From the NCBI GenBank assembly GCA_019339365.1, contig CP079859.1, forward strand, positions 2,294,001 through 2,358,000: 64,000 nt of DNA, written 5' to 3'. Numbering within the stretch: the stretch's first letter is position 1; every line of letters begins with the position of its first letter. Both the position numbers and the translations under genes were made by a program. Below the pieces are notes generated by a model. That model was not told the DNA's origin and did no database searches. It saw only the letters and a list, made by a program, of their open reading frames with translations. Below, in pieces: positions 22,455-41,014 of the stretch. Source of the DNA: Vibrio neptunius (GTDB taxonomy: Bacteria; Pseudomonadota; Gammaproteobacteria; Enterobacterales; Vibrionaceae).

Positions 22455-22525
22455 CGCACTTCAGAGCCAAAACGAGTTGGGTATTAAAGACGTATTGATG
22501 CCTTTTGAGATACAAGGAAAACGGT

Positions 22526-25135
22526 ATGACGCAAGTTACGCTAACAAATCTAGTCGCCAAGTTGTCACCAGAATTGAAACAAGCACTTGAAGTTTCTGCT
22601 GGGGCCGCTATGAATCAAAATGTCCCTTCTATTGAGACAGAACATTGGCTGTTGCAGTTGCTTTCACAGCAAGACAAACACTTAAATAGCCTCATTCAGT
22701 CACAAAACCTATCTCAGGATAATTTGGTCAACGAGCTGTCCTCGAAGATTGCTCGTTTTCCAAAAGGGAATGAGGGTCAGCCAACGCTTAGCCAAGCACT
22801 CACCGAAATCGTAAAAGACGCTTGGATGATTGCTTCGGTAAACTATGGCCATGGTGAAGTTATAAGCCTTCATTTGGTTCAAGCCATGCTGCAACAAAAC
22901 GTACTTGGAATGAACACTCTGCAGTTGGAAAGCTTACAAAGTGTATCATTGGAGTCTTTACAAGGTCTTATCAACAAAACAGCCGTTGCACGTTCTAAAA
23001 CCAGTGCCGCCGCAGATGGCTCAGGCGGAGCACCTGTCGGTAACGATGCACTCAGCAAGTATACAACAAACCTGACTCAGCAGGCTCTCGATGGAAACAT
23101 AGACCCAATTTCGGGACGCAATTCAGAAGTACGTAAAGCCATAGACATTCTTTGTAGGAAGCGCCAAAACAACCCTATCATGGTTGGGGAACCAGGGGTT
23201 GGTAAAACAGCAGTTGTAGAAGGTTTGGCATTGCGCATTGCGGCCAATGAAGTTCCAGGCGCACTTCAAGGCGTACAAATTCATTCGTTGGATCTTGGTT
23301 TGCTGCAAGCAGGTGCGAGTGTAAAAGGTGAATTCGAGAACCGACTCAAAGATGTGATCAACGAAGTAAAGAATAGCGAAAAGCCGATTATTGTTTTCAT
23401 TGATGAAGCTCATACCCTAATTGGCGCAGGAGGCGCGGCAGGCCAGAACGACGCAGCAAACTTATTGAAACCCGCTCTTGCTCGCGGTGAGTTCAAAACC
23501 ATCGCAGCGACCACATGGGCAGAGTACAAAAAGTACTTTGAAAAAGATCCGGCATTAACTCGACGCTTCCAAGTCGTGTCGATCGAAGAACCGAATGCAG
23601 AAGACGCGAAACAAATGCTTCGTGGTATTGCGGCGTCACTGCAAAAACACCACGGCGCCTTTATCGCTGAATCCGCTATCGATGCCGCAGTTCATTTGTC
23701 TATTCGCTACCTACCTAGTCGCCAGTTGCCTGATAAGGCGATTAGCTTACTCGACACTGCAAGTGCTCGTATCGCCCTTACTCAAGGCGCTAAACCTGAA
23801 GTTATTGAAGCACTTGAGCAGACGATCCGTTATCAGCAAAATGAAAAAGCAGCGCTAGAAAAAGAGCACGCTCTGTTTGGCATTGCAGAAGATGAAATTG
23901 CCGAACTCACTGGCGAAATTGCAGATAACGAAAAGAAACTCGCAGATTACCAAGCTCGTTGGAAGAAAGAGGTCGATTTCGTTGACCAAATCAAAGAGCT
24001 TCAGCAAGAAATCAGCGATGAACAAACCGAAAATAGTGTTGATAAAGCCAAGCAAGACAAACTGAATGAACTTATCGATCAGTTGGGTGAATTGCAGGGT
24101 GAAGAGCCGCTGGTCAACGCAATGGTTGATGACAATACCATCGCTCAGGTCATCGCTAACTGGACTGGTATCCCGGTCGGAAACATGATGAGTGATGAAA
24201 TCGCTCGACTTTTATCTCTAGAAGAAGAACTAGATAAGCGTGTCATCGGTCAAGATGTAGCAAAACAAGAACTAGCCAAAGCGATCCGAATTTCTCGTGC
24301 AGGCCTTACCGACAGTCGAAAACCGATTGGCGTGTTCCTCATGTGTGGCCCAAGTGGTGTGGGTAAAACCGAAACAGCCATGGCGCTTGCAGAGCAACTA
24401 TACGGTGGTAGCAACGATCTGACAGTAATCAACATGACCGAGTTTAAAGAGGAACATAAAATATCTATGTTACTTGGTTCTCCTGCTGGCTATGTTGGCT
24501 TTGGTGAAGGCGGAGTTTTGACGGAAGCTATTCGTCGAAACCCTTATTCAGTCTTGTTACTCGATGAAATGGAGAAAGCGCACCCTGGCGTCCATGATCT
24601 GTTCTACCAGATTTTCGACAAAGGCCATATTAAAGACAGTGAAGGCCGAACTGTCGACTTTAAGAACACCATCATCATCATGACATCCAACGCAGCAGAT
24701 CAGGCCATCTGTGATGTTTGTGCGGACAATAGTGAGCGCCTAAGCAATGAAGAGCTTCTCGAATCAATTAGGCCAGATCTTCAACACTACTTTAAACCTG
24801 CATTCCTCGGACGTACGACTATTGTGCCGTACTACCCATTAAACGATGAAGAATTGTCTAAAATTACTGAAATATCTCTCAATCGAATTAAGAAAAAACT
24901 CGCTGAGCAATATCAGGCTTCGTTTACATGGAATGAAGGCTTCGTAGAGTACGTCGTTGGCAAGAACACTGACCCTACGACAGGTGGACGCGCCGTTGAG
25001 CAGATCATTAACCGCTCTTTGATGCCTAAACTCGCAGAAGAATGTATCAGTAGATTGAGTCAGCAACAGCCAATCACTCAAGTTTCCGTTACGACCGCAA
25101 ATTGTGAGGAAGGATTCGATCTTACGATTAAGTAA
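22526..25135 (+). CDS. clpV: T6SS sheath-recycling AAA+ ATPase ClpV (TssH)
   Basis: Disassembles the contracted sheath for reuse. About 869 residues. An N-terminal Clp_N domain (about 1-150) leads into AAA domain 1 with Walker A GEPGVGKTAVVEG (near residue 221) and Walker B IVFIDEAHTLIGAGG, a coiled-coil middle region (about 430-530), and AAA domain 2 with GPSGVGKTETA (near 608) and VLLLDEMEKAHP. The ATG at 22526 has AAGGA eight bases upstream; an earlier TTG in the same frame is less likely. This is the T6SS-type ClpV rather than ClpB by context and by the VASVNYGHGEV-type N domain. Confidence 0.95.
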   Translation: MTQVTLTNLVAKLSPELKQALEVSAGAAMNQNVPSIETEHWLLQLLSQQDKHLNSLIQSQNLSQDNLVNELSSKIARFPKGNEGQPTLSQALTEIVKDAWMIASVNYGHGEVISLHLVQAMLQQNVLGMNTLQLESLQSVSLESLQGLINKTAVARSKTSAAADGSGGAPVGNDALSKYTTNLTQQALDGNIDPISGRNSEVRKAIDILCRKRQNNPIMVGEPGVGKTAVVEGLALRIAANEVPGALQGVQIHSLDLGLLQAGASVKGEFENRLKDVINEVKNSEKPIIVFIDEAHTLIGAGGAAGQNDAANLLKPALARGEFKTIAATTWAEYKKYFEKDPALTRRFQVVSIEEPNAEDAKQMLRGIAASLQKHHGAFIAESAIDAAVHLSIRYLPSRQLPDKAISLLDTASARIALTQGAKPEVIEALEQTIRYQQNEKAALEKEHALFGIAEDEIAELTGEIADNEKKLADYQARWKKEVDFVDQIKELQQEISDEQTENSVDKAKQDKLNELIDQLGELQGEEPLVNAMVDDNTIAQVIANWTGIPVGNMMSDEIARLLSLEEELDKRVIGQDVAKQELAKAIRISRAGLTDSRKPIGVFLMCGPSGVGKTETAMALAEQLYGGSNDLTVINMTEFKEEHKISMLLGSPAGYVGFGEGGVLTEAIRRNPYSVLLLDEMEKAHPGVHDLFYQIFDKGHIKDSEGRTVDFKNTIIIMTSNAADQAICDVCADNSERLSNEELLESIRPDLQHYFKPAFLGRTTIVPYYPLNDEELSKITEISLNRIKKKLAEQYQASFTWNEGFVEYVVGKNTDPTTGGRAVEQIINRSLMPKLAEECISRLSQQQPITQVSVTTANCEEGFDLTIK

Positions 25136-25156
25136 GTGAGAAAGACGAACAGCAAG

Positions 25157-27705
25157 ATGGATACTGGATACATGATTAAGCCTAGACGATTTATCTCACT
25201 AAGAGCCAAACTCATCTTGGCAATTGTCTCCGCCTTGCTGTTCTCTAATGGGCTGAATACAACATTAAACTATCTCAATTTCGATAAACGACTCACCCAG
25301 ACAAGTGATTCCACCTATCAAGTTGTGCTCGACGAAACGGATAATGATATTCGTCAAGCGATGAGCTTAGGTCTTCCCCTTTCCTCGATATCAAACATTC
25401 AATCTTTGATTGAAAGGCGCTCAGACCTTGTCGATGGCATCAGCAAAATTCAGGTCGTCAATCGTACCAATCAAGTATTGTTTACTACTGGTGTAGCCAA
25501 ATTTGACACCGACAGACTACTGACTACGGACATAGTCAATACATTCAATGTAAAAGAAGGCGAGTTGAGACTTTACTACTCACCGCTATACCTAGAAAAA
25601 ATCAAACAGACATTATTGTCTCAACAAATCATGGATACCCTTTTATGGGTATTAGTCGCAGCGGTAATAGGCTACGTTTTCCTGAACTCGCTACTTGATT
25701 TTCTGCTCAAAAAGTTCAGGCCGCCACCAAGGCAATCAACGACCAAGACCTTACTGATAGGCAAGTGATGCTTTCAGTAAGGAATTACATTATTGCAGGG
25801 CGCTCTGGGTCCAAGTGGGATAAAATGCGAGCACGATACTTTCCTCTGCTTATCATTCTACTCGCCATTATCTTAACCGTCGCCTCAAATTTAGCCAGTT
25901 CCTACCAGTCTTTGAGTAAATTCTCGATCGTCTACGAAAAGCAGCTTGAGCAAAAATCTAACCTAATTGGTGATACGCTATCTCATATGATTGGGCGCAT
26001 CATTGACGAGGGGGTTCCTCTTGAGCGATTGGTCGGATTGGAGGAAGAATTTTCAGCGTATATTGAGCATCATCCTGAATTACTCTCAATTCGTTTGGAG
26101 AACAACAAAGCTGCTATCTATCAATATCCAAAATTTTTCCCAGATTATGTCGAGGCCAGTGAATTATCTATTCCAATAGATACCACTGGAATCATCAAGC
26201 TCCAAATGATGGCTGATACCAACATCATCCCTCAGATGATCAAAGACAGTATCATGGACATGATCACTGTCCTCGTTGCGTCAGGCTTGTTCGTTATCGA
26301 AATCATCCTGTTTATCTGTCATTTCATGATCATCAAACCGTGGAAACAAATTAAGCAGCTAATCGCAATGGGCGAAAACAAACAAGTACCCTATCTAGTA
26401 CAGGTTCAATCTAATGACGAATTTGGTACCCTAATTGGAAAGCTTAACCTGCGGATAAAAGCGGCCTTTGCGCGTGAAAACTTACCTGAACGAAACATTC
26501 AGGATTATCGCTTTATCAGGCTCCCTTTGTTTATCTTGATTTTCTCTGAAGCGGCCTCCCTCGCCTTTTTCCCAAACTTTGTCGCCAGTTTACCAAGCAA
26601 TCAAAACTGGATCCCTGCAGACTTAGTGACCAGCCTACCTATTTCACTCTTTATGTTATGTTGGGCAATTTCTCTTCCCTTTGCGGGTTACTGGTCCGAT
26701 AAAGTCGGTAGAAGAAAGTCGCTGATCAGTGGTGGACTTATTACAGCATTTGGTTTGGTTGCGACAGCCTTAAGTCCTAATTTGGAGTTGCTGCTCATTG
26801 CCAGAGCACTTACTGCTGTTGGATATGGTGTCGTATTTATCTCCGCTCAGGGCTACGTCACTGACACGACGAACACGCAGAATAGAACCAAAGGTATGTC
26901 GACCTTCTTATCTGCTTTTTTCTCCGGTTCACTTTGCGGGGCAGCAATTGGTGGCGTCTTAGCCGACAAATTGGGCTACTCGATGACATTTCTACTTGCA
27001 GCGACTATGGCTGTCATAGGTGTGATACTGGTCATAAGCTTCTTTGACCGTGGAGAATCGAATAGCGAAAGTAAGCCCGTACAGCTTAGTGACTTTAAAA
27101 TACTCTTAAGCAACAAGTACTTTGCTCTCATCACTTTTTTTAGTGCTATCCCTGCAAAAGTAGTCTTGACCGGTTTCTTGTATTACATCTGCCCGGTATA
27201 TTTGCAGTCTTTGGGAGAGAGCAGCGCCGTTTCAGGACGAGTAATGATGACATATGGGCTGGCAATCATCATCATCTCGCCTCTCGCCGCGATGCTGATC
27301 GATAAGTGGAATAACAAGATCGCCTTTATCTTTGCCGGCGGTATCTTGTCTGCTGCAGCATTGATGAATATTATGTTATTACCGGGAACTTCTGGATTAC
27401 TGATGATAGTAATATTAGTGGGTATAGCGCATGGCATATGCGTTTCTCCACAGGTACCGCTTATCATAGAGTTGTTATCGGATTCCGGATTAGATAAAGG
27501 CAAAACGATTGGTATCTTCCGATTGACGGAACGCATTGGCAATATTGCTGGCCCTCTGGTTGCAGGACTGGCTTTAAGTGTTTTGGGATTTCAAAACACG
27601 ATAGTGCTGTTTGGCATTGCACTACTAATCAGTTCTATTGTTCTGCTTGGCTGTTATAGCTTATTTGTTCGCAGAGATAAGAACCAACTGGAGGTGCTGA
27701 AATGA
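25157..27705 (+). CDS. Double periplasmic sensor-HAMP-MFS transporter fusion (frame broken in an A run)
   Basis: Unusual membrane protein of about 849 residues. In order: a TM segment (about 15-35), a periplasmic domain with DETDNDIRQAMSLGLPLSSI, a second TM (about 165-185), a HAMP-like linker VQAATKAINDQDLTDRQ, a third TM (about 225-245), a second periplasmic domain, a fourth TM (about 385-405), a clear HAMP second helix with SNDEFGTLIGKLN, and then a 12-TM MFS domain with the loop GYWSDKVGRRKS and RALTAVGYG. The first 185 residues are in another frame: the A run at 25709-25713 has five A, and six would join the frames through the linker without a stop. If the break were real, two separate membrane proteins would result. 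Start could also be 25136 (GTG) or 25172. Its end overlaps the next gene by 4 bases. Confidence 0.75.
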
Positions 27706-28702
27706 AAGCGTTGTTTTTATGCTTGGTTATTCTTTTCCCGTTTGTAACATCAGCGGAAGATGCTGAAGATAAAAAACATGTCGTCATGATATTGTGGCGC
27801 GGTGTGACGGATGCCGAGCGTGGATTCATCGATTACCTGTCCGGAAAAATGAACGTAAGATACACCGTCTTGGATGCTAATCGTGACAAATTCGTCCTGA
27901 AGCAGCACCTAGAAAACATTGAGCATTTAAAGCCGGATTTAATCTATACGTTTGGCACGACTATCACCCTCAATCTTTTAGGTACTGAGCATAACCCTAG
28001 CCAATTCAGAGAGAACAGTGATACCCCCGTTGTATTTAGTATCGTAACAGACCCTGTGGGGTCGAAGATTGTTAACGCTTTAGATGAAGATGGGCGAAAC
28101 TTTACAGGCGTCAGCCATATCGTTCCTCACGACGTACAGTTGAACGCCATCAGTCAGTTGAGTGGAATCCAAACCATAGGTATTATCTTTAATCCTTTAG
28201 AAAGCAATGCCGTAGTGACTGCAAGAAATATACAAACGCTTTCGGCAAGATTTAAGAAAGATGTATACTTGTATCCGCTAAGAACGAGGAACGATAAACC
28301 CGATTCTAGCTCCGTTGAAAAAGTCGTCGATCTCATGATTGAGGACGGTGTTCAACTGGCTTATCTTCCCCCGATTCGTACATCATTAGTCAAGGTAAAA
28401 GCATTGTAGACAATTTACATCAACAAGGTATTGCAACGTTTTCTGCAACCGAATCTCCTATACGAAAGCACGACGCACTGTTTGGTATTGTCAGTCGCTA
28501 TTACAACGTTGGCCAGTTTGCTGGTCACAAAGCGGAACAAATATTAAGTGGAAAATACATACCCAGCGACGTCCCTATTGAGCCACTTACTCAATACTCA
28601 TATATAGTTAATGTCGGTGCTGCTCGTACACTTAATTATTATCCACCCGTATCAATTTTAAAAATTTCCGAACTTATTGGAGGAAATGAATGGTCAGAAT
28701 GA
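27702..28702 (+). CDS. Periplasmic binding protein of the ABC_sub_bind type (frame broken in a C run)
   Basis: A signal peptide (MKALFLCLVILFPFVTSAE) leads into a two-lobe binding protein of about 333 residues resembling the ABC_sub_bind family (tryptophan/tyrosine-binding-like): VVMILWRGVTDAERGF, KPDLIYTFGTTITLNLL, TPVVFSIVTDPVGSKIV, NFTGVSHIVP, IGIIFNPLESNA. The frame breaks at the C run 28368-28372 (five C; six would continue through LPPDSYIISQGKSIVDNL). Restored, it ends at ELIGGNEWSE, overlapping the next gene by 13 bases. No ABC permease or ATPase lies nearby; the partner is more likely the sensor-MFS protein encoded just upstream. Confidence 0.8.
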
Positions 28703-29412
28703 TGCCGTATTTTACTTTCTGCCTAGCGATTTTTCTTGGCCTAGTTACTATAGCCAATGCTTCAGCACAAACGACTTTTGGTCCTGCGCGTTTGCACTTA
28801 ACAACGCAGGACTGGCCTCCTTACCAGGACTATAAACATGGTCAGATGCAAGGTATTGCGTTGGATAAAGTGAAATGCGCTCTCAGTCATATGGGGCAAC
28901 CCTATCAGATCACGATGACAGTCTGGTCAGACGCGCAGTTGCGAGTGCAAAGTGGTACTCAACACGGCTTTTTTGTCGCGACTCAAACAGCGGAGCGTGA
29001 TGAGTATGCGACGTTATCAGCCCCGATCGCACAGCAAAAACTTCGTTGGTACTTTGGTCCTGGAGTAGAGCCTAAAATGGATGAGCTTACCAAAGTTAAC
29101 CTTAAATTTTCTGCTAAATTTGGGTCCAACAAGTGGTTTTGGTTAAAGCGCAACGGATTCAACGTAGTCAAACAGCCTCGAGATGCTAAAGTATTACTAA
29201 AGCTTTTAAAACAAAGGGATATTGATGTCGCACTGGAAGATGAAAAAGTCTTTGAGAGTGAGCTAAAAGAAGCCTCTCTACCAGACGATTTTTTCCAGTC
29301 ACAATTGATGGACACTCAACCTATGGGTGTTTACTTCTCGAATCGATTCCTTAAAAAATACTCTGGTTTCCTATCTGCATTTAATGCAGCGACTTTAAAG
29401 TGTGAGGGGTAA
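28690..29412 (+). CDS. Periplasmic solute-binding protein of the SBP_bac_3 type
   Basis: 240 residues with a signal peptide (cleavage near ANASA-QT) and a type-2 periplasmic binding fold like amino-acid binding or HisJ-like proteins: LTTQDWPPYQDY, MQGIALDKVKCALSHMG, FFVATQTAERDEYATLSAPI, LLKQRDIDVALEDEKVFE, and VYFSNRFLKKYSGFLSAFN. It has a GGAGGAA site overlapping the end of the preceding gene. Such domains also occur as sensory subunits. With the two preceding genes it makes a three-gene module inside the T6SS operon. Confidence 0.85.
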   Translation: MVRMMPYFTFCLAIFLGLVTIANASAQTTFGPARLHLTTQDWPPYQDYKHGQMQGIALDKVKCALSHMGQPYQITMTVWSDAQLRVQSGTQHGFFVATQTAERDEYATLSAPIAQQKLRWYFGPGVEPKMDELTKVNLKFSAKFGSNKWFWLKRNGFNVVKQPRDAKVLLKLLKQRDIDVALEDEKVFESELKEASLPDDFFQSQLMDTQPMGVYFSNRFLKKYSGFLSAFNAATLKCEG

Positions 29413-29415
29413 CGA

Positions 29416-30355
29416 ATGACTATTAGCATTCATTTGATTTCTGTACCCTCTGATGAGGTAGTCACCTCTCGCGTGGTGTACTTACCAAAAACAGGTGGTG
29501 AATTTGGAAGGGCAACATCTTGTGACATCTCTTTACCCGACCAAAGCAAACGCATCTCAAGAGTGCATGGCAGTATTCGTCTCACAGACAACGGATACTG
29601 TGTGAAAAGTACAGGCCAAAACAGCGCCGTACTCAATGACAAAAACATGGTCCAAGGAAAAGAGTACCCGCTCAACGATGGGGATATTCTAAAGGTAGAA
29701 AACTACACCATGCTTGTCTCGACACTCGTGACCTCGAATCAAGCTCAAGACGAAGTGAAAGACGATACGTTGTTTTCAGAGCCATTTTCTCTTCAACTAG
29801 ATAACGACGAAATCGACTTTTTAGAAGAGGAACCAACCCCAGTGAACAGTCAAAAGAGCAGCCCGTTTTCTGAAGACAACGTACTAAGCGATGACCCTTT
29901 TTGCTGCGGACCCTTTTGAAGACTTAGACGCAGACGTGATTGCAGCCCATGTTGAGGTTGATGACATCCATGTTAAGGTCCCTCAAAGTCCCGAAGCCTC
30001 TGAGTTTCTGCCCGTTGATTCGAAAGTTGGTGCTCCTATCGAAGCATCACTTGAAAAACTTCTATCAATGACTGAAAAGAACCATAAATACTTGAGAAAT
30101 CCGTCTCTGCACCATGAAGCTCTCTTTGAAGCTTTAGAGAAGACGGTAGATCAGTTCTTGAATGAGTTCGCCCCCAATCAGCTTGAAAGACAATTTAGTG
30201 ATTACATCTCTGGTGGTATGTTTACCAACAAGGAGAAAAAGTACTGGAAGATATACCGTAAACATTTCCAGCACAGACAAGACAACGGTGACTTCAGGCG
30301 TCAGTTCAAAGCTCTCTTTATGGAGAATATGCAAAAACAAAGAGAGGAAAGTTAA
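29416..30355 (+). CDS. tagH: FHA-domain T6SS protein TagH/Fha (frame broken in a T run)
   Basis: Phosphothreonine-binding scaffold of the threonine-phosphorylation pathway that controls T6SS assembly. The N-terminal FHA domain (residues about 20-95) shows GGEFGRATSCDISLPD, SKRISRVHGSIR and LNDGDILKV, containing the key Gly-Arg, Ser and His. A long acidic linker follows, and a C-terminal helical domain with LHHEALFEALEKTVDQFLNEFAPNQLE is typical of T6SS Fha proteins. The frame breaks at the T run 29898-29902 (five T; four would give DDPFAADPFEDLD). Reconstructed length about 312. Its partner is probably the kinase at the end of the operon. Confidence 0.88.
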
Positions 30356-36789: not shown

Positions 36790-37536
36790 GTGAACATGAA
36801 CAACGAAGCAGGACACAAAATAGAATCTTGTTTTAGAGTACTGGGCATCACCCAGTATTCACTGCTTCGTAATACAACCTATCTTGCTACTCATCCTCAG
36901 TTTGGTTCAACCATTGTAAAGTTCGCTCAAACTGTAGCGGCAAAACAACAGCTCAAAACCGAAGCTGAATTCCTGCATCATCATTCTTCTCCCTACTGGC
37001 CCAAGTTTCTCGACTATGGATCCGACATGGGGATGGACTGGCTGATGCTGGAATTTTTTGAGTCTCTGTCAATCGATTATTCACAGTTAGACCTATGTCT
37101 AAAAAAAGAAATTACCAGTAGCGCTGAACAAGCTCTCATTGCCTTGCATGGCACAGGATACATTCATGGTGATATCAAACCTTCTAATCTGATAGTCACC
37201 CCATGCTACCGAACCCTATTGGTCGACATGGGGAGCATACTCCCCATAGGGTCCAACTACGAACACCAAACACACTCTTCTCTCTCTCCTATGTTTTCTG
37301 CTTTAAACCCCAATCTACGCACTGGCAAAATCTCCCCTCAGAATGATTTCTTTTCACTCGCCATTTCACTGCAGACAATGTGGGAACATCACCCTTTTTC
37401 AGAGCAATCTTTAATAGAGTTTATAAAAACAGAAAAGCCCCCCAAATTGGGGAGCCTTTCGAGTTGTTATCAAATACTCATTGCCCAACAAGTTAAACGG
37501 GCTAAGCAACTTGCTCCGGCCTCAAATACTGACTGA
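36790..37536 (+). CDS. Small Ser/Thr protein kinase of the T6SS operon (PpkA-like)
   Basis: Probably phosphorylates the FHA protein or other T6SS parts. 248 residues, kinase domain only. Visible are the beta-3 lysine in STIVKFAQ, the catalytic loop HGDIKPSNLIV (HxDxKPxN) and LVDMGS in place of the DFG motif, then QNDFFSLAISL as the helix-F Asp region. There is no TM segment or sensor domain, unlike full-length PpkA. No PppA-type phosphatase is in the locus. Start could be GTG 36790 or ATG 36796. Its last 35 bases overlap a minus-strand gene remnant, and an inverted repeat lies within its 3' end. Confidence 0.85.
   Translation: MNMNNEAGHKIESCFRVLGITQYSLLRNTTYLATHPQFGSTIVKFAQTVAAKQQLKTEAEFLHHHSSPYWPKFLDYGSDMGMDWLMLEFFESLSIDYSQLDLCLKKEITSSAEQALIALHGTGYIHGDIKPSNLIVTPCYRTLLVDMGSILPIGSNYEHQTHSSLSPMFSALNPNLRTGKISPQNDFFSLAISLQTMWEHHPFSEQSLIEFIKTEKPPKLGSLSSCYQILIAQQVKRAKQLAPASNTD
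37435..37463 (-). terminator. Leftward terminator-like hairpin inside the kinase 3' end
   Basis: On the minus strand: AAGGCTCCCC, short AATT loop, TGGGGGGCTTTTC and then TGTTTTTA. The stem has wobble pairs but the following T-rich tract suits termination of a leftward transcript, about 40 bases past the minus-strand reading frame that ends at 37502. Confidence 0.5.
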
Positions 37537-37779: not shown

Positions 37780-38751
37780 ATGTTTAAGGTACTCAAGCCA
37801 ACACTGGCAGCTTCAATCATCGCTGCGTCTTTTTCTTTCAACACTTTTGCAGCTGATCTTGAAAAAATACACTTCCTCATCCCCGGAGGTGCTGGTGGTG
37901 GCTGGGATATGACAGCACGTGGTACAGGAGATGTCCTCGTTAAGTCAGATATTGTCGATAACGTATCATTCCAAAACTTATCCGGAGGTGGTGGTGGTAA
38001 AGCCATTGCTCACCTAATTGAAACCGCTAAGCGTCAAGAAGATACGCTAATGGTGAACTCAACTCCGATCGTAGTACGCTCACTGACAGGCATTTTCCCT
38101 CAGTCATTCCGTGACTTAACGCCTGTTGCAGCCACCATTGCAGATTATGGTGCCATCGTGACCTCTGTTGATTCCAAGTACAACACATGGGAGGACGTGG
38201 TTAAAGATTTCGAATCTAACCCTCGCAAGGTCAAAATTGCCGGCGGATCCGCTCGTGGTAGTATGGACCACCTAGTGGTAGCAGCAGCCTTCAAGGGCGA
38301 CGGTTTCGATGCACGAAAAGTGCGCTATATCGCTTATGATGCAGGCGGCAAAGCTATGGCGGCTCTCCTCTCTGGCGAAACGCAACTGCTCTCAACGGGT
38401 CTCGGCGAAGTACTTGAAATGTCAAAATCAGGGCAAGTTAAGATCCTCGCGGTCACAGCGCCTAAGCGCCTAGAAGCAGCACCAAATATTCCAACTCTGA
38501 CTGAATACGGAAACGAAACCGTCTTTGCTAACTGGCGTGGATTCTTTGCCGCTCCAGGGACAAGCCAAGAAAAACTGGATGAGTGGAACACCGCACTTCA
38601 GAAAATGTATAACACCGACGAGTGGCAAGTGGTTCGAGATCGTAATGGCTGGATTGATAACTACAAGGCAGACAAAGATTTTTACGCTTTCCTTGAAGAC
38701 CAAGAAAAGCAAATGGGCGACCTGATGCGCGAGCTAGGTTTCCTTAAGTAA
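37780..38751 (+). CDS. tctC: Tripartite tricarboxylate transporter, periplasmic binding protein TctC
   Basis: Bug-family substrate-binding subunit of a TctABC secondary transporter for citrate or a similar carboxylate. 323 residues with a signal peptide (cleavage after NTFAA). Family motifs: IHFLIPGGAGGGWDMTARGTGDVL at the mature N terminus, GGSARGSMDHLV in the middle, GEVLEMSKSGQVKILAV and NWRGFFAAPGTSQEKLD. AAGGAA lies 9 bases before the ATG. First gene of tctCBA; a hairpin separates it from tctB. No tctDE two-component pair is next to it, which is the common neighbour in enterics. Confidence 0.93.
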   Translation: MFKVLKPTLAASIIAASFSFNTFAADLEKIHFLIPGGAGGGWDMTARGTGDVLVKSDIVDNVSFQNLSGGGGGKAIAHLIETAKRQEDTLMVNSTPIVVRSLTGIFPQSFRDLTPVAATIADYGAIVTSVDSKYNTWEDVVKDFESNPRKVKIAGGSARGSMDHLVVAAAFKGDGFDARKVRYIAYDAGGKAMAALLSGETQLLSTGLGEVLEMSKSGQVKILAVTAPKRLEAAPNIPTLTEYGNETVFANWRGFFAAPGTSQEKLDEWNTALQKMYNTDEWQVVRDRNGWIDNYKADKDFYAFLEDQEKQMGDLMRELGFLK

Positions 38752-38758
38752 TCCTGTC

Positions 38759-38783
38759 GAGGGCAAACTGCACTTGCCCTCTT
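38759..38783 (+). terminator. Attenuator hairpin between tctC and tctB
   Basis: Perfect 8-pair stem GAGGGCAA / TTGCCCTC with a 7-base loop, followed by TTACCTTTTTG. It probably ends most transcripts after tctC, giving more binding protein than membrane subunits. The gap to tctB is 200 bases and no gene is seen in it. Confidence 0.7.
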
Positions 38784-38951
38784 ACCTTTTTGCCGTACCT
38801 GAGACAACGACACAATCTCCTCTGTTTAGAAATAAACAGCTAAGCCTCTTTGACTAGCAGCAAATGGCTTATTGGTTAGTGATGTATGCTCATTAATCCC
38901 TCTTGTACGGCTTTTTTTCTTCCTTCAATGTGAATGCAAATGGAGTTGGAT

Positions 38952-39470
38952 ATGTCGGACTTGCCAACGAATTCTTTCAACAAAGGTCAATTTTTCTCAA
39001 AAGAGAATTTGCTTTGTCGCGATCGCGTCGGCGCTATGATCTTTCTTTTAGTATGCCTTTGTTATGGCTACCAAACATCACAAATTCCTCTTTTTCCCGG
39101 TGACGAATATGAACCCTTCACGGCTCGCACCTTGCCCACACTACTGACCTTTATCGGTATTGGTTTATCTCTGATTCTTCTGGTGACAGGTCAAGCGGAT
39201 AAATTAAGCGGCGCAGTAGTGGATTTTAACTGGAAACTGCTGATCGCTTTTCTTGCGTTAATGGCGTTTTACGGTTTAGGGCTGACTTACATTGGGTTTG
39301 TACTCGCAACGGGATTATTTCTACTCGCAGGTTTTTACCTGCTGGGTGAACGGCGGAAAAAAGTCCTGTTCGGAGCCTCTTTCCCTTTTGTCATCGCATT
39401 TTATCTGCTGCTCACCCAAGGACTGGATATTTATCTAGAACCGGGCGTCATTTTCACCATGTGGTCGTAA
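38952..39470 (+). CDS. tctB: Tripartite tricarboxylate transporter, small membrane subunit TctB
   Basis: Small four-helix membrane protein of the TctABC carrier. About 172 residues with TM segments near AMIFLLVCLCYGYQTS, LPTLLTFIGIGLSLILLVTG, LLIAFLALMAFYGLGLTYIGFVLATGLFLLAGFYLL and FPFVIAFYLLLTQGL. The start at 38952 (MSDLPTNS) has GGAG six bases upstream; two earlier in-frame ATGs (38934, 38940) do not. 17 bases before tctA. Confidence 0.85.
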   Translation: MSDLPTNSFNKGQFFSKENLLCRDRVGAMIFLLVCLCYGYQTSQIPLFPGDEYEPFTARTLPTLLTFIGIGLSLILLVTGQADKLSGAVVDFNWKLLIAFLALMAFYGLGLTYIGFVLATGLFLLAGFYLLGERRKKVLFGASFPFVIAFYLLLTQGLDIYLEPGVIFTMWS

Positions 39471-39487
39471 ACAGTAAGGAATAGCAA

Positions 39488-41014
39488 ATGTTAGATGGAA
39501 TCTTACAAGGTCTTTCGACCGCAGTGATGCCGATGAACATCATGATGGTGATCGTCGGTTGTTTCGTTGGTACTTTCATCGGTATGTTGCCTGGCCTTGG
39601 CCCAATTTCAGCCATCGCTTTGATGATACCCATTACGTACGGCTTAGATCCTTCATCAGGTCTAATTTTAATGGCAGGTGTGTATTACGGTGCGGTATTT
39701 GGTGGCTCGACTTCTTCTATTCTGATCAACGCTCCGGGTTGTTCTTCTACCGTTGTGACCGCTTTTGATGGCTACCCAATGGCGCAGAAAGGTCAGGCTG
39801 GTAAAGCACTTGCTCTGGCTGCCTACTCGTCATTTACAGGTGGTACCCTATCCGCGATTATGCTGCTTGTCGCGGCTCCTGCTCTGGCAAGCGTGTCACT
39901 TAGCTTCCAGTCTTCTGACTACTTCGCACTGATGCTATTAGGCTTGTCAGCTGTTGCCGCTTTTGCTGGTAAAGGTCAGGTAATCAAAGCTTGGATGATG
40001 ACCATTCTAGGCTTAATGCTCTCCACGGTAGGTATCGATAAAGGCGTGGGAGTAGAACGCTTTACGTTTGGACTGACAGACTTAATGGATGGATTCAGCT
40101 TCCTGCTTTTAGCTATGGCGACTTTTGCATTAGGCGAGACCTTAATGGGCATCCTTAAACCAGAAAAAGACACTCGCAACGAAGAACAAAGCAAAATGAG
40201 TGACATTGGCAGCATGAAAGTCACCAAAGAGGAAATCAAAGAGGTCGCGCCTGTTTCGATTCGTTCTTCTATATTGGGCTTCTTTACCGGCGTGTTGCCA
40301 GGCGCTGGTGCAACTATCGCAGCCTTTCTGAGCTATGGTATGGAACGTAACCTAGCACCTAAAGATAAAAAAGAACAATTTGGTAAAGGCAGCATCCGCG
40401 GGTTGGTTGCTCCAGAGTCAGCGAACAATGCAGCATCAAGTGGCTCATTTGTACCGCTTTTAACCTTGGGTATTCCGGGTTCAGGCACAACAGCGATCAT
40501 GTTAGGCGCACTGATTGCTTATGGTATCCAACCGGGCCCACGTCTGTTTGTCGAGCATCCTGACGTCTTCTGGTCAGTTATCATCTCGATGTACTTTGGT
40601 AACATTGTTTTAGTGATTCTCAACTTGCCACTGATTCCTTATATTTCCAAGTTGTTGGCAGTCCCTAGAACCGTGCTATTACCAATGATTTTGTTCTTCT
40701 CTATTACTGGTGTTTACCTAGTGTCATTCAACACTATGGATGTCTTCATCATGTTGTTGATTGCGATGGGTGCCATTGCACTGAGGCTAGCTAATTTCCC
40801 TCTCGCTCCACTGTTGCTTGGTTTTATCCTTGGCGGATTGATGGAAGAGAACTTACGTCGGGCATTAATGATCAGTGACGGAGAACTCAGCTTCCTATGG
40901 GAAAGACCTATTTCAATGACCTTTACCGTGTTAGCCGTATTGGTATTGTTTAGCCCTATTCTCGTTAAGCTGTTTCAAAGACTAAAACCTAGTCCGGTTA
41001 AAGCGGAGCAATAA
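39488..41014 (+). CDS. tctA: Tripartite tricarboxylate transporter, large membrane subunit TctA
   Basis: Main permease of the carrier, driven by an ion gradient. 508 residues and about a dozen TM segments. Two TctA signature repeats are seen: GMLPGLGPISAIALMIPITYGLDPSSGLILMAGVYYGAVFGGS with SILINAPG, and GVLPGAGATIAAFLSYGMER followed by GVLAPESANNAASSG-like APESANNAASSGSFVPLLTLGIPGSGTTA. Length and order match the family. Ends the operon; a terminator follows. Confidence 0.95.
   Translation: MLDGILQGLSTAVMPMNIMMVIVGCFVGTFIGMLPGLGPISAIALMIPITYGLDPSSGLILMAGVYYGAVFGGSTSSILINAPGCSSTVVTAFDGYPMAQKGQAGKALALAAYSSFTGGTLSAIMLLVAAPALASVSLSFQSSDYFALMLLGLSAVAAFAGKGQVIKAWMMTILGLMLSTVGIDKGVGVERFTFGLTDLMDGFSFLLLAMATFALGETLMGILKPEKDTRNEEQSKMSDIGSMKVTKEEIKEVAPVSIRSSILGFFTGVLPGAGATIAAFLSYGMERNLAPKDKKEQFGKGSIRGLVAPESANNAASSGSFVPLLTLGIPGSGTTAIMLGALIAYGIQPGPRLFVEHPDVFWSVIISMYFGNIVLVILNLPLIPYISKLLAVPRTVLLPMILFFSITGVYLVSFNTMDVFIMLLIAMGAIALRLANFPLAPLLLGFILGGLMEENLRRALMISDGELSFLWERPISMTFTVLAVLVLFSPILVKLFQRLKPSPVKAEQ

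What the first reader, a model, noticed from the sequence alone, without database searches (positions are those of the whole stretch)
25157..29412. Sensor-HAMP-MFS fusion with two periplasmic binding proteins inside the T6SS operon
Between clpV and tagH, where T6SS operons normally have no transport genes, lie three tightly coupled genes (overlaps of 4 and 13 bases). The first, once a single missing A is restored, encodes two tandem periplasmic sensor regions, each followed by a HAMP-like linker (the second with SNDEFG), ending in a 12-TM MFS domain. A HAMP sensor with a transporter as output is unusual. The other two are periplasmic binding proteins of two different families without any ABC permease. 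Seen: domain order, overlaps, no stop in the joined frame. Inference: a ligand-sensing or uptake module that tunes this T6SS, perhaps replacing a sigma-54 activator, which is absent.
Basis: partly seen in the sequence, partly recalled or inferred. Interest (0 to 1): 0.8.

Follow-up and report, generated by a model that had tools for sequence, protein, structure and literature searches.

The report
Sensor-transporter cassette built into Vibrio T6SS
Inside the genes for a bacterial injection machine of marine vibrios sits a conserved set of genes that looks like an outside-sensing receptor joined to a transporter plus two ligand-catching proteins; relatives of this set appear to have been attached to such machines more than once, so it may tell the machine when to act, although that has not been tested here.

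Summary
The block is real and conserved. The order clpV / sensor-MFS / ABC_sub_bind / SBP3 / FHA holds in 39 of 40 related loci. By gene order this is the T6SS called T6SS2 (anti-eukaryotic) in V. coralliilyticus. The 'fusion' joins two genes that are mostly separate in relatives: a small sensor and a Cache-(HAMP-like)-MFS protein, followed by ABC_sub_bind. That cassette also occurs beside SpoIIE/STAS partner-switch genes, a cyclase or a T3SS, and in three T6SS arrangements. On the MFS tree types A and B sit apart with different neighbours. SBP3 is the constant part: six T6SSs without the cassette still carry it between clpV and FHA. Best reading: a periplasmic ligand-sensing input that tunes T6SS firing, possibly through the FHA/PpkA pair. 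No function was tested.

The parts
22505..25135 (+). clpV (tssH), upstream neighbour
   Evidence: ORF; ClpV HMM order in relatives
25136..25768 (+). first piece of the sensor-MFS gene: TM, periplasmic Cache-type sensor 1 (about 25364-25579), TM; frame interrupted in this assembly, intact copies exist
   Evidence: inner positions mapped by me from the model of the intact relative
25765..27705 (+). second piece of the sensor-MFS gene: TM, sensor 2 (about 26038-26217), TM, HAMP-like linker (about 26323-26466), MFS (about 26506-27699)
   Evidence: Pfam MFS_1; model of the intact relative, positions mapped by the MFS match offset
27702..28409 (+). first piece of ABC_sub_bind (PF04392) periplasmic protein; signal peptide by eye, no lipobox in relatives
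   Evidence: 54.6 bits; lipobox regex 0 of 19 relatives
28373..28702 (+). second piece of the ABC_sub_bind gene in another frame; one frame of 330-339 aa in 17 of 19 named relatives, 374 aa in two
   Evidence: 23.8 bits
28690..29412 (+). SBP3-type periplasmic binding protein; signal peptide by eye, no lipobox in relatives; the constant part of this T6SS class
   Evidence: alignment
29416..30355 (+). tagH (FHA) in two frames in this assembly, single 312-aa frame in V. neptunius S2394
36790..37536 (+). PpkA-like Ser/Thr kinase at the end of the T6SS operon
   Evidence: Pkinase 36.8 bits over cut-off 31.7

Best explanation
The three genes are an envelope ligand-sensing input of this T6SS. Two soluble periplasmic binding proteins (ABC_sub_bind and SBP3) would bind a small ligand and dock, as LuxP does on LuxQ, on the Cache-type sensors of an inner-membrane receptor whose C-terminal part is an MFS. 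The MFS would move the ligand, or act as a ligand-gated conformational switch. The state of the receptor would be passed to the T6SS, possibly via the neighbouring FHA protein and the PpkA-like kinase, setting when the machine assembles and fires. Shown here: gene content, order, conservation, Cache and MFS folds by prediction, association with T6SS in three arrangements, occurrence of the same cassette beside signalling genes elsewhere. Inferred: ligand binding, docking, direction of signalling, the FHA/PpkA route.
Against: No function, ligand or interaction is tested. Six T6SS clusters of the same class lack the MFS/ABC_sub part and look otherwise complete, so it is not essential. Of the 48 loci outside the main Vibrionaceae types, the secretion genes that I searched for show in 3 (L074, L122, L124), so the cassette is not a T6SS-specific thing. 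The MFS keeps transporter motif A in 12 of 12 type A rows, which also fits plain transport. The HAMP is not detected in this protein. No direct link to FHA or PpkA is shown. Neighbour counts come from related genomes and are not independent; the SpoIIE, STAS and RsbW-like queries were taken from two of the loci themselves (L123, L124).
Confidence: 0.5

Rival explanations
1. A transport module that happens to be co-transcribed: the MFS imports or exports a metabolite caught by the two binding proteins, and the T6SS link reflects shared niche, not signalling.
For: MFS motif A intact in 12 of 12 type A rows; best structural matches are exporter-type MFS: NorA, VMAT, MdfA; two binding proteins; a tripartite Tct transporter operon lies just downstream of the T6SS in the window.
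Against: Cache sensors fused to the transporter; no ABC permease partner; motif A lacks its first Gly, its Asp and its second Gly in 5 of 5 type C rows, its first Gly in 11 of 11 type B rows, and its Asp in 21 of 26 'other' and 13 of 18 SpoIIE-linked rows; neighbours elsewhere include SpoIIE, STAS, HATPase_c_2 and cyclase genes.
Confidence: 0.25
2. SBP3 alone is the T6SS-relevant accessory (periplasmic co-factor of the membrane complex or of PpkA) and the MFS/ABC_sub cassette is an optional passenger.
For: SBP3 stays between clpV and FHA in 6 of 6 cassette-free clusters of this class and in L214; close SBP3 found in 50 of 52 genomes with the cassette and 6 of 244 without.
Against: The cassette stands next to SBP3 or in the same run of T6SS genes in three arrangements, and 41 of 47 rows of the type A clade in the ClpV tree keep it.
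Confidence: 0.15
3. Inside-out signalling: the MFS or cytoplasmic state drives the periplasmic domains, which act as outputs on the T6SS membrane complex, as in LapD.
Confidence: 0.05
4. The block is degenerating in this strain: the two frame breaks are real pseudogenising mutations.
For: Two of the three genes are broken in the window; the fusion gene is also interrupted in one other genome (L077).
Against: Indels are excessive relative to substitutions over the whole 21.8 kb and mostly sit by homopolymers; tagH, the second tssC-like gene and prpC are split as well although relatives have them in one frame.
Confidence: 0.1

Closest known systems
Pseudomonas aeruginosa TagQRST upstream of PpkA/Fha (recalled)
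   Same: Envelope proteins encoded in the T6SS cluster and thought to feed the threonine phosphorylation pathway; here too FHA and a PpkA-like kinase are in the cluster
   Different: TagST is an ABC transporter and TagQ/TagR are other families (recalled); here Cache-MFS plus two binding proteins, homology not tested
LuxPQ (periplasmic binding protein controls a membrane sensor)
   Same: Proposed docking of a soluble binding protein on a membrane-bound periplasmic sensor; LuxP's role is stated in PMC11837519 (passage)
   Different: LuxQ is a kinase/phosphatase, this receptor ends in an MFS
Cache-HAMP receptors: WalK, chemoreceptors, HAMP-SpoIIE phosphatases
   Same: TM, Cache fold, TM, HAMP-like linker
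   Different: Cytoplasmic enzyme or signalling output replaced by an MFS; two sensors in tandem
DHA1-type MFS exporters (NorA, MdfA, VMAT)
   Same: Fold (NorA 8ttf TM-score 0.81 by target length)
   Different: N-terminal 445-residue double sensor; motif A eroded in types B and C and in many other relatives
T6SS of V. fluvialis (VflT6SS1) and V. splendidus in PMC5371669
   Same: Section 15 notes an ABC-type periplasmic component and an MFS transporter at the left junction of VflT6SS1, and that homologues of V. splendidus VS_1324 and VS_1325 are missing in V. furnissii and V. fluvialis; VS_1326 is annotated ClpB
   Different: The section draws no link between the two facts and gives no function; that these are types B and A is my inference from gene order

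Membership tests
T6SS gene cluster | TssA-M core, Hcp, VgrG, ClpV present around the block | tested here: met
   Window ORFs; the names of the Tss genes are my reading, only the kinase, TctC and the block were run against Pfam. The window's proteins find the same run of genes in relatives
V. coralliilyticus T6SS2 (anti-eukaryotic) | Hcp VIC_RS20130 and VgrG VIC_RS20150 with three genes between | tested here: met
   Paper table (PMC11371242, passage); locus order Hcp, TssA, gap, small gene, VgrG in L130 of G553, whose sequence equals L010 of BAA-450; my ORF picker did not call PAAR in that gap; the step of five between locus tags is recalled
MFS transporter | MFS_1 profile; motif A | tested here: met
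   34 of 34 members match MFS_1; motif A in 12 of 12 type A rows
HAMP domain | PF00672 above the gathering score | tested here: not met
   No match in the V. neptunius protein; 8 of 34 family members at E<=0.05, P0086 over the cut-off
Cache sensor | Cache fold between two TM helices | tested here: met
ABC_sub_bind (PF04392) | Profile above the gathering score | tested here: met
   89.1 bits in the intact relative
TrpX tryptophan-binding protein (NF041285) | Score above 390 bits | tested here: not met
   58 and 29 bits for the two window pieces; the intact relative was not scored against this library
ABC importer | Permease and ATPase genes | tested here: not met
   None among the ORFs of the block
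SBP_bac_3 (PF00497) | Profile above the gathering score 26.4 | tested here: inconclusive
   24.1 bits here; 28.4 and 30.0 bits in relatives L214 and L219, 17.8 in L217
TagQRST | Homologous proteins | not tested
   Compared by role only

The most novel reading that the evidence does not exclude
A so far undescribed signalling family (as far as my searches show): Cache-(HAMP-like)-MFS 'export-and-sense' receptors with a dedicated binding protein, which feed different outputs (SpoIIE/STAS partner switches, cyclases, T3SS, T6SS). In T6SSs it would work as an autocrine or host-ligand gate: the MFS exports or moves a ligand, the periplasmic proteins capture it, the Cache domains read it and the T6SS is licensed. 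In the type C version a D-Ala-D-Ala-ligase-like ATP-grasp gene precedes the receptor in 5 of 5 loci read and could make the ligand.
Probability: 0.2. Interest if true: 0.85.

Novelty: new variant of a known kind. Interest (0 to 1): 0.6.

Why it matters
How vibrios decide when to fire an animal-directed T6SS is open: in V. coralliilyticus, T6SS2 transcription and secretion respond in opposite directions to quorum-sensing mutations, and the authors infer another, likely post-transcriptional, mechanism (PMC11837519, passages). A conserved sensing cassette inside the matching operon is a concrete candidate, testable by deletion. More widely, an MFS as the C-terminal half of a Cache receptor, attached to several unrelated outputs, would widen the known ways in which transporters signal.

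Tried and rejected
A real frameshift or programmed slippage: not my first choice, because an intact frame is the rule in relatives and the window has excess indels. Two separate genes in this T6SS: rejected for type A. ABC importer: no permease or ATPase in the block. TrpX: far below cut-off. Ats3-type regulator: a GlxA-superfamily regulator at another Vibrio T6SS (PMC9545535, passages), unrelated. Recent insertion as the explanation of the six empty clusters: the ClpV tree puts them inside type A, so loss at least twice is simpler (quick tree, several open forks). Text searches listed no paper on a HAMP-MFS receptor or on this T6SS module among the titles and abstract openings shown; led to PMC5371669. 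The library holds open-licence PMC papers only and the lists were capped. Foldseek against PDB with the sensor half gave one match at E<=0.001, an integrative WalK model; pdb_via gave the Cache matches. A sequence search of PDB with SBP3 found nothing at E<=1. My first motif A scans were faulty - one pattern too strict, the other also hit a later loop - and are replaced by an alignment-based reading.
Full report
What is there. The window is G000:C1:2294001-2358000 of a two-contig 5.36-Mb genome, 98.5% identical over 21.8 kb to Vibrio neptunius S2394. A complete-looking T6SS operon runs from VgrG (10694) to a PpkA-like kinase (36790-37536) (the Tss names are my reading). Between clpV and tagH lie the genes of the finding. 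In the window the first is read as 25136-25768 and 25765-27705, the second as 27702-28409 and 28373-28702, the third as 28690-29412. In 19 of 19 named Vibrio loci (L009-L027, of 20 loci; the twentieth, a Sporolactobacillus MFS at 21% identity, was dropped) the first gene is one frame of 847-872 residues, and the second one frame of 330-339 residues, or 374 in two loci where the longest frame starts further upstream. Over 21.8 kb the window carries 6 indels beside 320 substitutions relative to S2394, five of them single-base and five by homopolymers, against 1 gap beside 1692 substitutions between two other vibrios; tagH, the second tssC-like gene and prpC are split too.

Which T6SS. In V. coralliilyticus BAA-450 the published T6SS2 Hcp is VIC_RS20130 and VgrG VIC_RS20150, while the T6SS1 Hcp and VgrG are VIC_RS16330 and VIC_RS16325 (PMC11371242, passages and section 6). 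The BAA-450 locus homologous to the window has Hcp, TssA, a gap where PAAR should lie, a small gene and VgrG (L130; identity of the genome by sequence), so the window's system corresponds to T6SS2, which that paper describes as anti-eukaryotic. A quorum-sensing paper finds some T6SS2 genes transcriptionally activated but T6SS2 secretion repressed by quorum sensing and proposes another, likely post-transcriptional, mechanism (PMC11837519, passages).

Distribution inside Vibrionaceae. Of 296 genomes, 52 carry the protein at E<=1e-90: 41 with the two-sensor form (type A, the window included), 10 with a single-sensor form plus a separate 265-289-aa sensor gene (type B), and one (G631) of 966 aa in whose stretch I found no T6SS gene. 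Of 40 type A loci fetched, 39 show clpV, fusion, ABC_sub_bind, SBP3, FHA in that order; L078 ends at a contig edge, and in L077 the fusion gene is itself interrupted. Type B sits upstream of VgrG in 7 of 7 loci printed, of 10 (VgrG confirmed by HMM in five of these), and SBP3 lies between clpV and FHA in 5 of 5 extended. A search with SBP3 hit 100 of 296 genomes. By score, 56 are close (329 bits or more): 50 of the 52 genomes with the cassette, and 6 without it. In all six the cluster reads clpV, SBP3, FHA; one of the six, G643, has a type C protein in another cluster, the other five have none. Fisher p is 3e-47, uncorrected for kinship. In the ClpV tree five of the six form a clade inside type A and the sixth stands apart, so loss at least twice is likely (quick tree, open forks). 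A lower SBP3 tier of 39 genomes (146-242 bits) was searched with a third, more distant MFS (type C): 34 of 39 have it, in all 34 1138-1258 bases upstream of SBP3 on the same strand. Five type C loci read show a D-Ala-D-Ala-ligase-like gene, MFS, ABC_sub_bind (22-34 bits with my HMM, over the Pfam cut-off in the two tested), SBP3 and FHA after clpV, with two further ORFs after clpV in L221; L214 has SBP3 alone. Three further genomes at 168-175 bits were left out of that tier (one read, L219, has no T6SS gene), as were weaker hits.

Distribution beyond. The protein was found in 4 of 369 class-level, 8 of 398 phylum-level, and 44 of 199, 9 of 61, 2 of 194, 1 of 3 and 1 of 4 order-level genomes (the samples overlap, cut-offs 1e-90 or 1e-80). 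I read 48 further loci from 47 genomes (L122 is a type B locus of another family, L073 is Vibrio G631; not all hits were fetched). ABC_sub_bind shows in 41 of 48 and a separate small sensor gene directly upstream in 31 of 48; of the seven without ABC_sub_bind two lie on short contigs. SpoIIE is within the fetched stretch in 17 of 48, and SpoIIE, STAS or HATPase_c_2 in 19 of 48; by SpoIIE numbers in the 47 genomes 0.66 would be expected in random 19-kb windows, maximum 6 in 200,000 simulations, again without correction for kinship (eight of the 17 come from one family group, f235). L124 adjoins an FlhB/YscU-family gene in a run of ORFs that by eye is a T3SS rather than a flagellum; L075 a Cache-HAMP cyclase; L074/L129 a weak VgrG match (71 bits) and weak tssK/tssL matches (51 and 25 bits). 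In the other 45 of 48 none of the secretion genes that I searched for shows.

Relation of the types. In the tree of the sensor-MFS protein (88 rows) type B is one clade (100*) whose nearest rows are two SpoIIE-linked loci (100*); type A, with P0078 (Motilimonas) and P0081, is nested among other single- and double-sensor proteins (99-100*). The two T6SS-linked groups are therefore not each other's nearest kin in this tree, which suggests separate recruitment; the deepest split itself is weak (85-91), and the tree is a quick one with long branches. By alignment, MFS motif A is kept in 12 of 12 type A rows; type B lacks its first Gly in 11 of 11 but keeps the Asp in 10; type C lacks first Gly, Asp and second Gly in 5 of 5; the Asp is also missing in 21 of 26 'other' and 13 of 18 SpoIIE-linked rows.

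Mechanism. I propose a sensing input: binding proteins catch a ligand and act on the Cache domains; the MFS is transporter or conformational partner; the output reaches T6SS assembly, perhaps through FHA and the kinase. Steps shown: anatomy, synteny, recurrence. Steps inferred: everything functional. Control of T6SS assembly through PpkA and Fha by an envelope protein has a published example in TssW of Acidovorax citrulli (PMC12607579, passages); TagQRST is recalled.

Print. PMC5371669 (section 15 read) reports, without linking them, an ABC-type periplasmic component and an MFS transporter at the left junction of the V. fluvialis T6SS1, and the absence there of homologues of V. splendidus VS_1324 and VS_1325, numbered next to the ClpB gene VS_1326. 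I read these as type B and type A, an inference from gene order only. A search for VS_1325 gave this paper and one irrelevant paper.

Noticed in passing
window 6556-7248/7245-7751, 17945-18448/18373-19338, 29416-29919/29891-30355, 41060-42016/41932-42543, 42553-43248/43116-43526: Further genes (prpC, a second tssC-like gene, tagH, a TolC-like and an HlyD-like gene, named by eye) are split over two frames; the first three are single frames in relatives. Suggests indel noise in this assembly.
   Followed up: partly
L215-L218, L221: A second Vibrionaceae T6SS class has a D-Ala-D-Ala-ligase-like ATP-grasp gene before a two-sensor MFS, ABC_sub_bind and SBP3, all between clpV and FHA.
   Followed up: partly
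L124:995-9393: The sensor-MFS and ABC_sub_bind cassette stands between export genes that look like a T3SS and a HAMP-SpoIIE phosphatase gene.
   Followed up: partly
L123:8491-13355: The cassette directly follows RsbW-like HATPase_c_2 and STAS genes, a partner-switch arrangement.
   Followed up: partly
L208:6738-9884, L209:6631-9843, L212:4943-8155: Beside the PpkA-like kinase of cassette-free T6SS clusters lies a 1048-1070-residue protein; the L208 copy has SBP_bac_3, HAMP-like and HD domains. Possibly a replacement sensor.
   Followed up: no
L133:5184-19901: A single open frame of about 4900 residues, running off the stretch, lies downstream of a type B T6SS; not studied.
   Followed up: no
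window 37780-41014: A tripartite tricarboxylate (Tct) transporter operon follows the T6SS; not part of the module.
   Followed up: no
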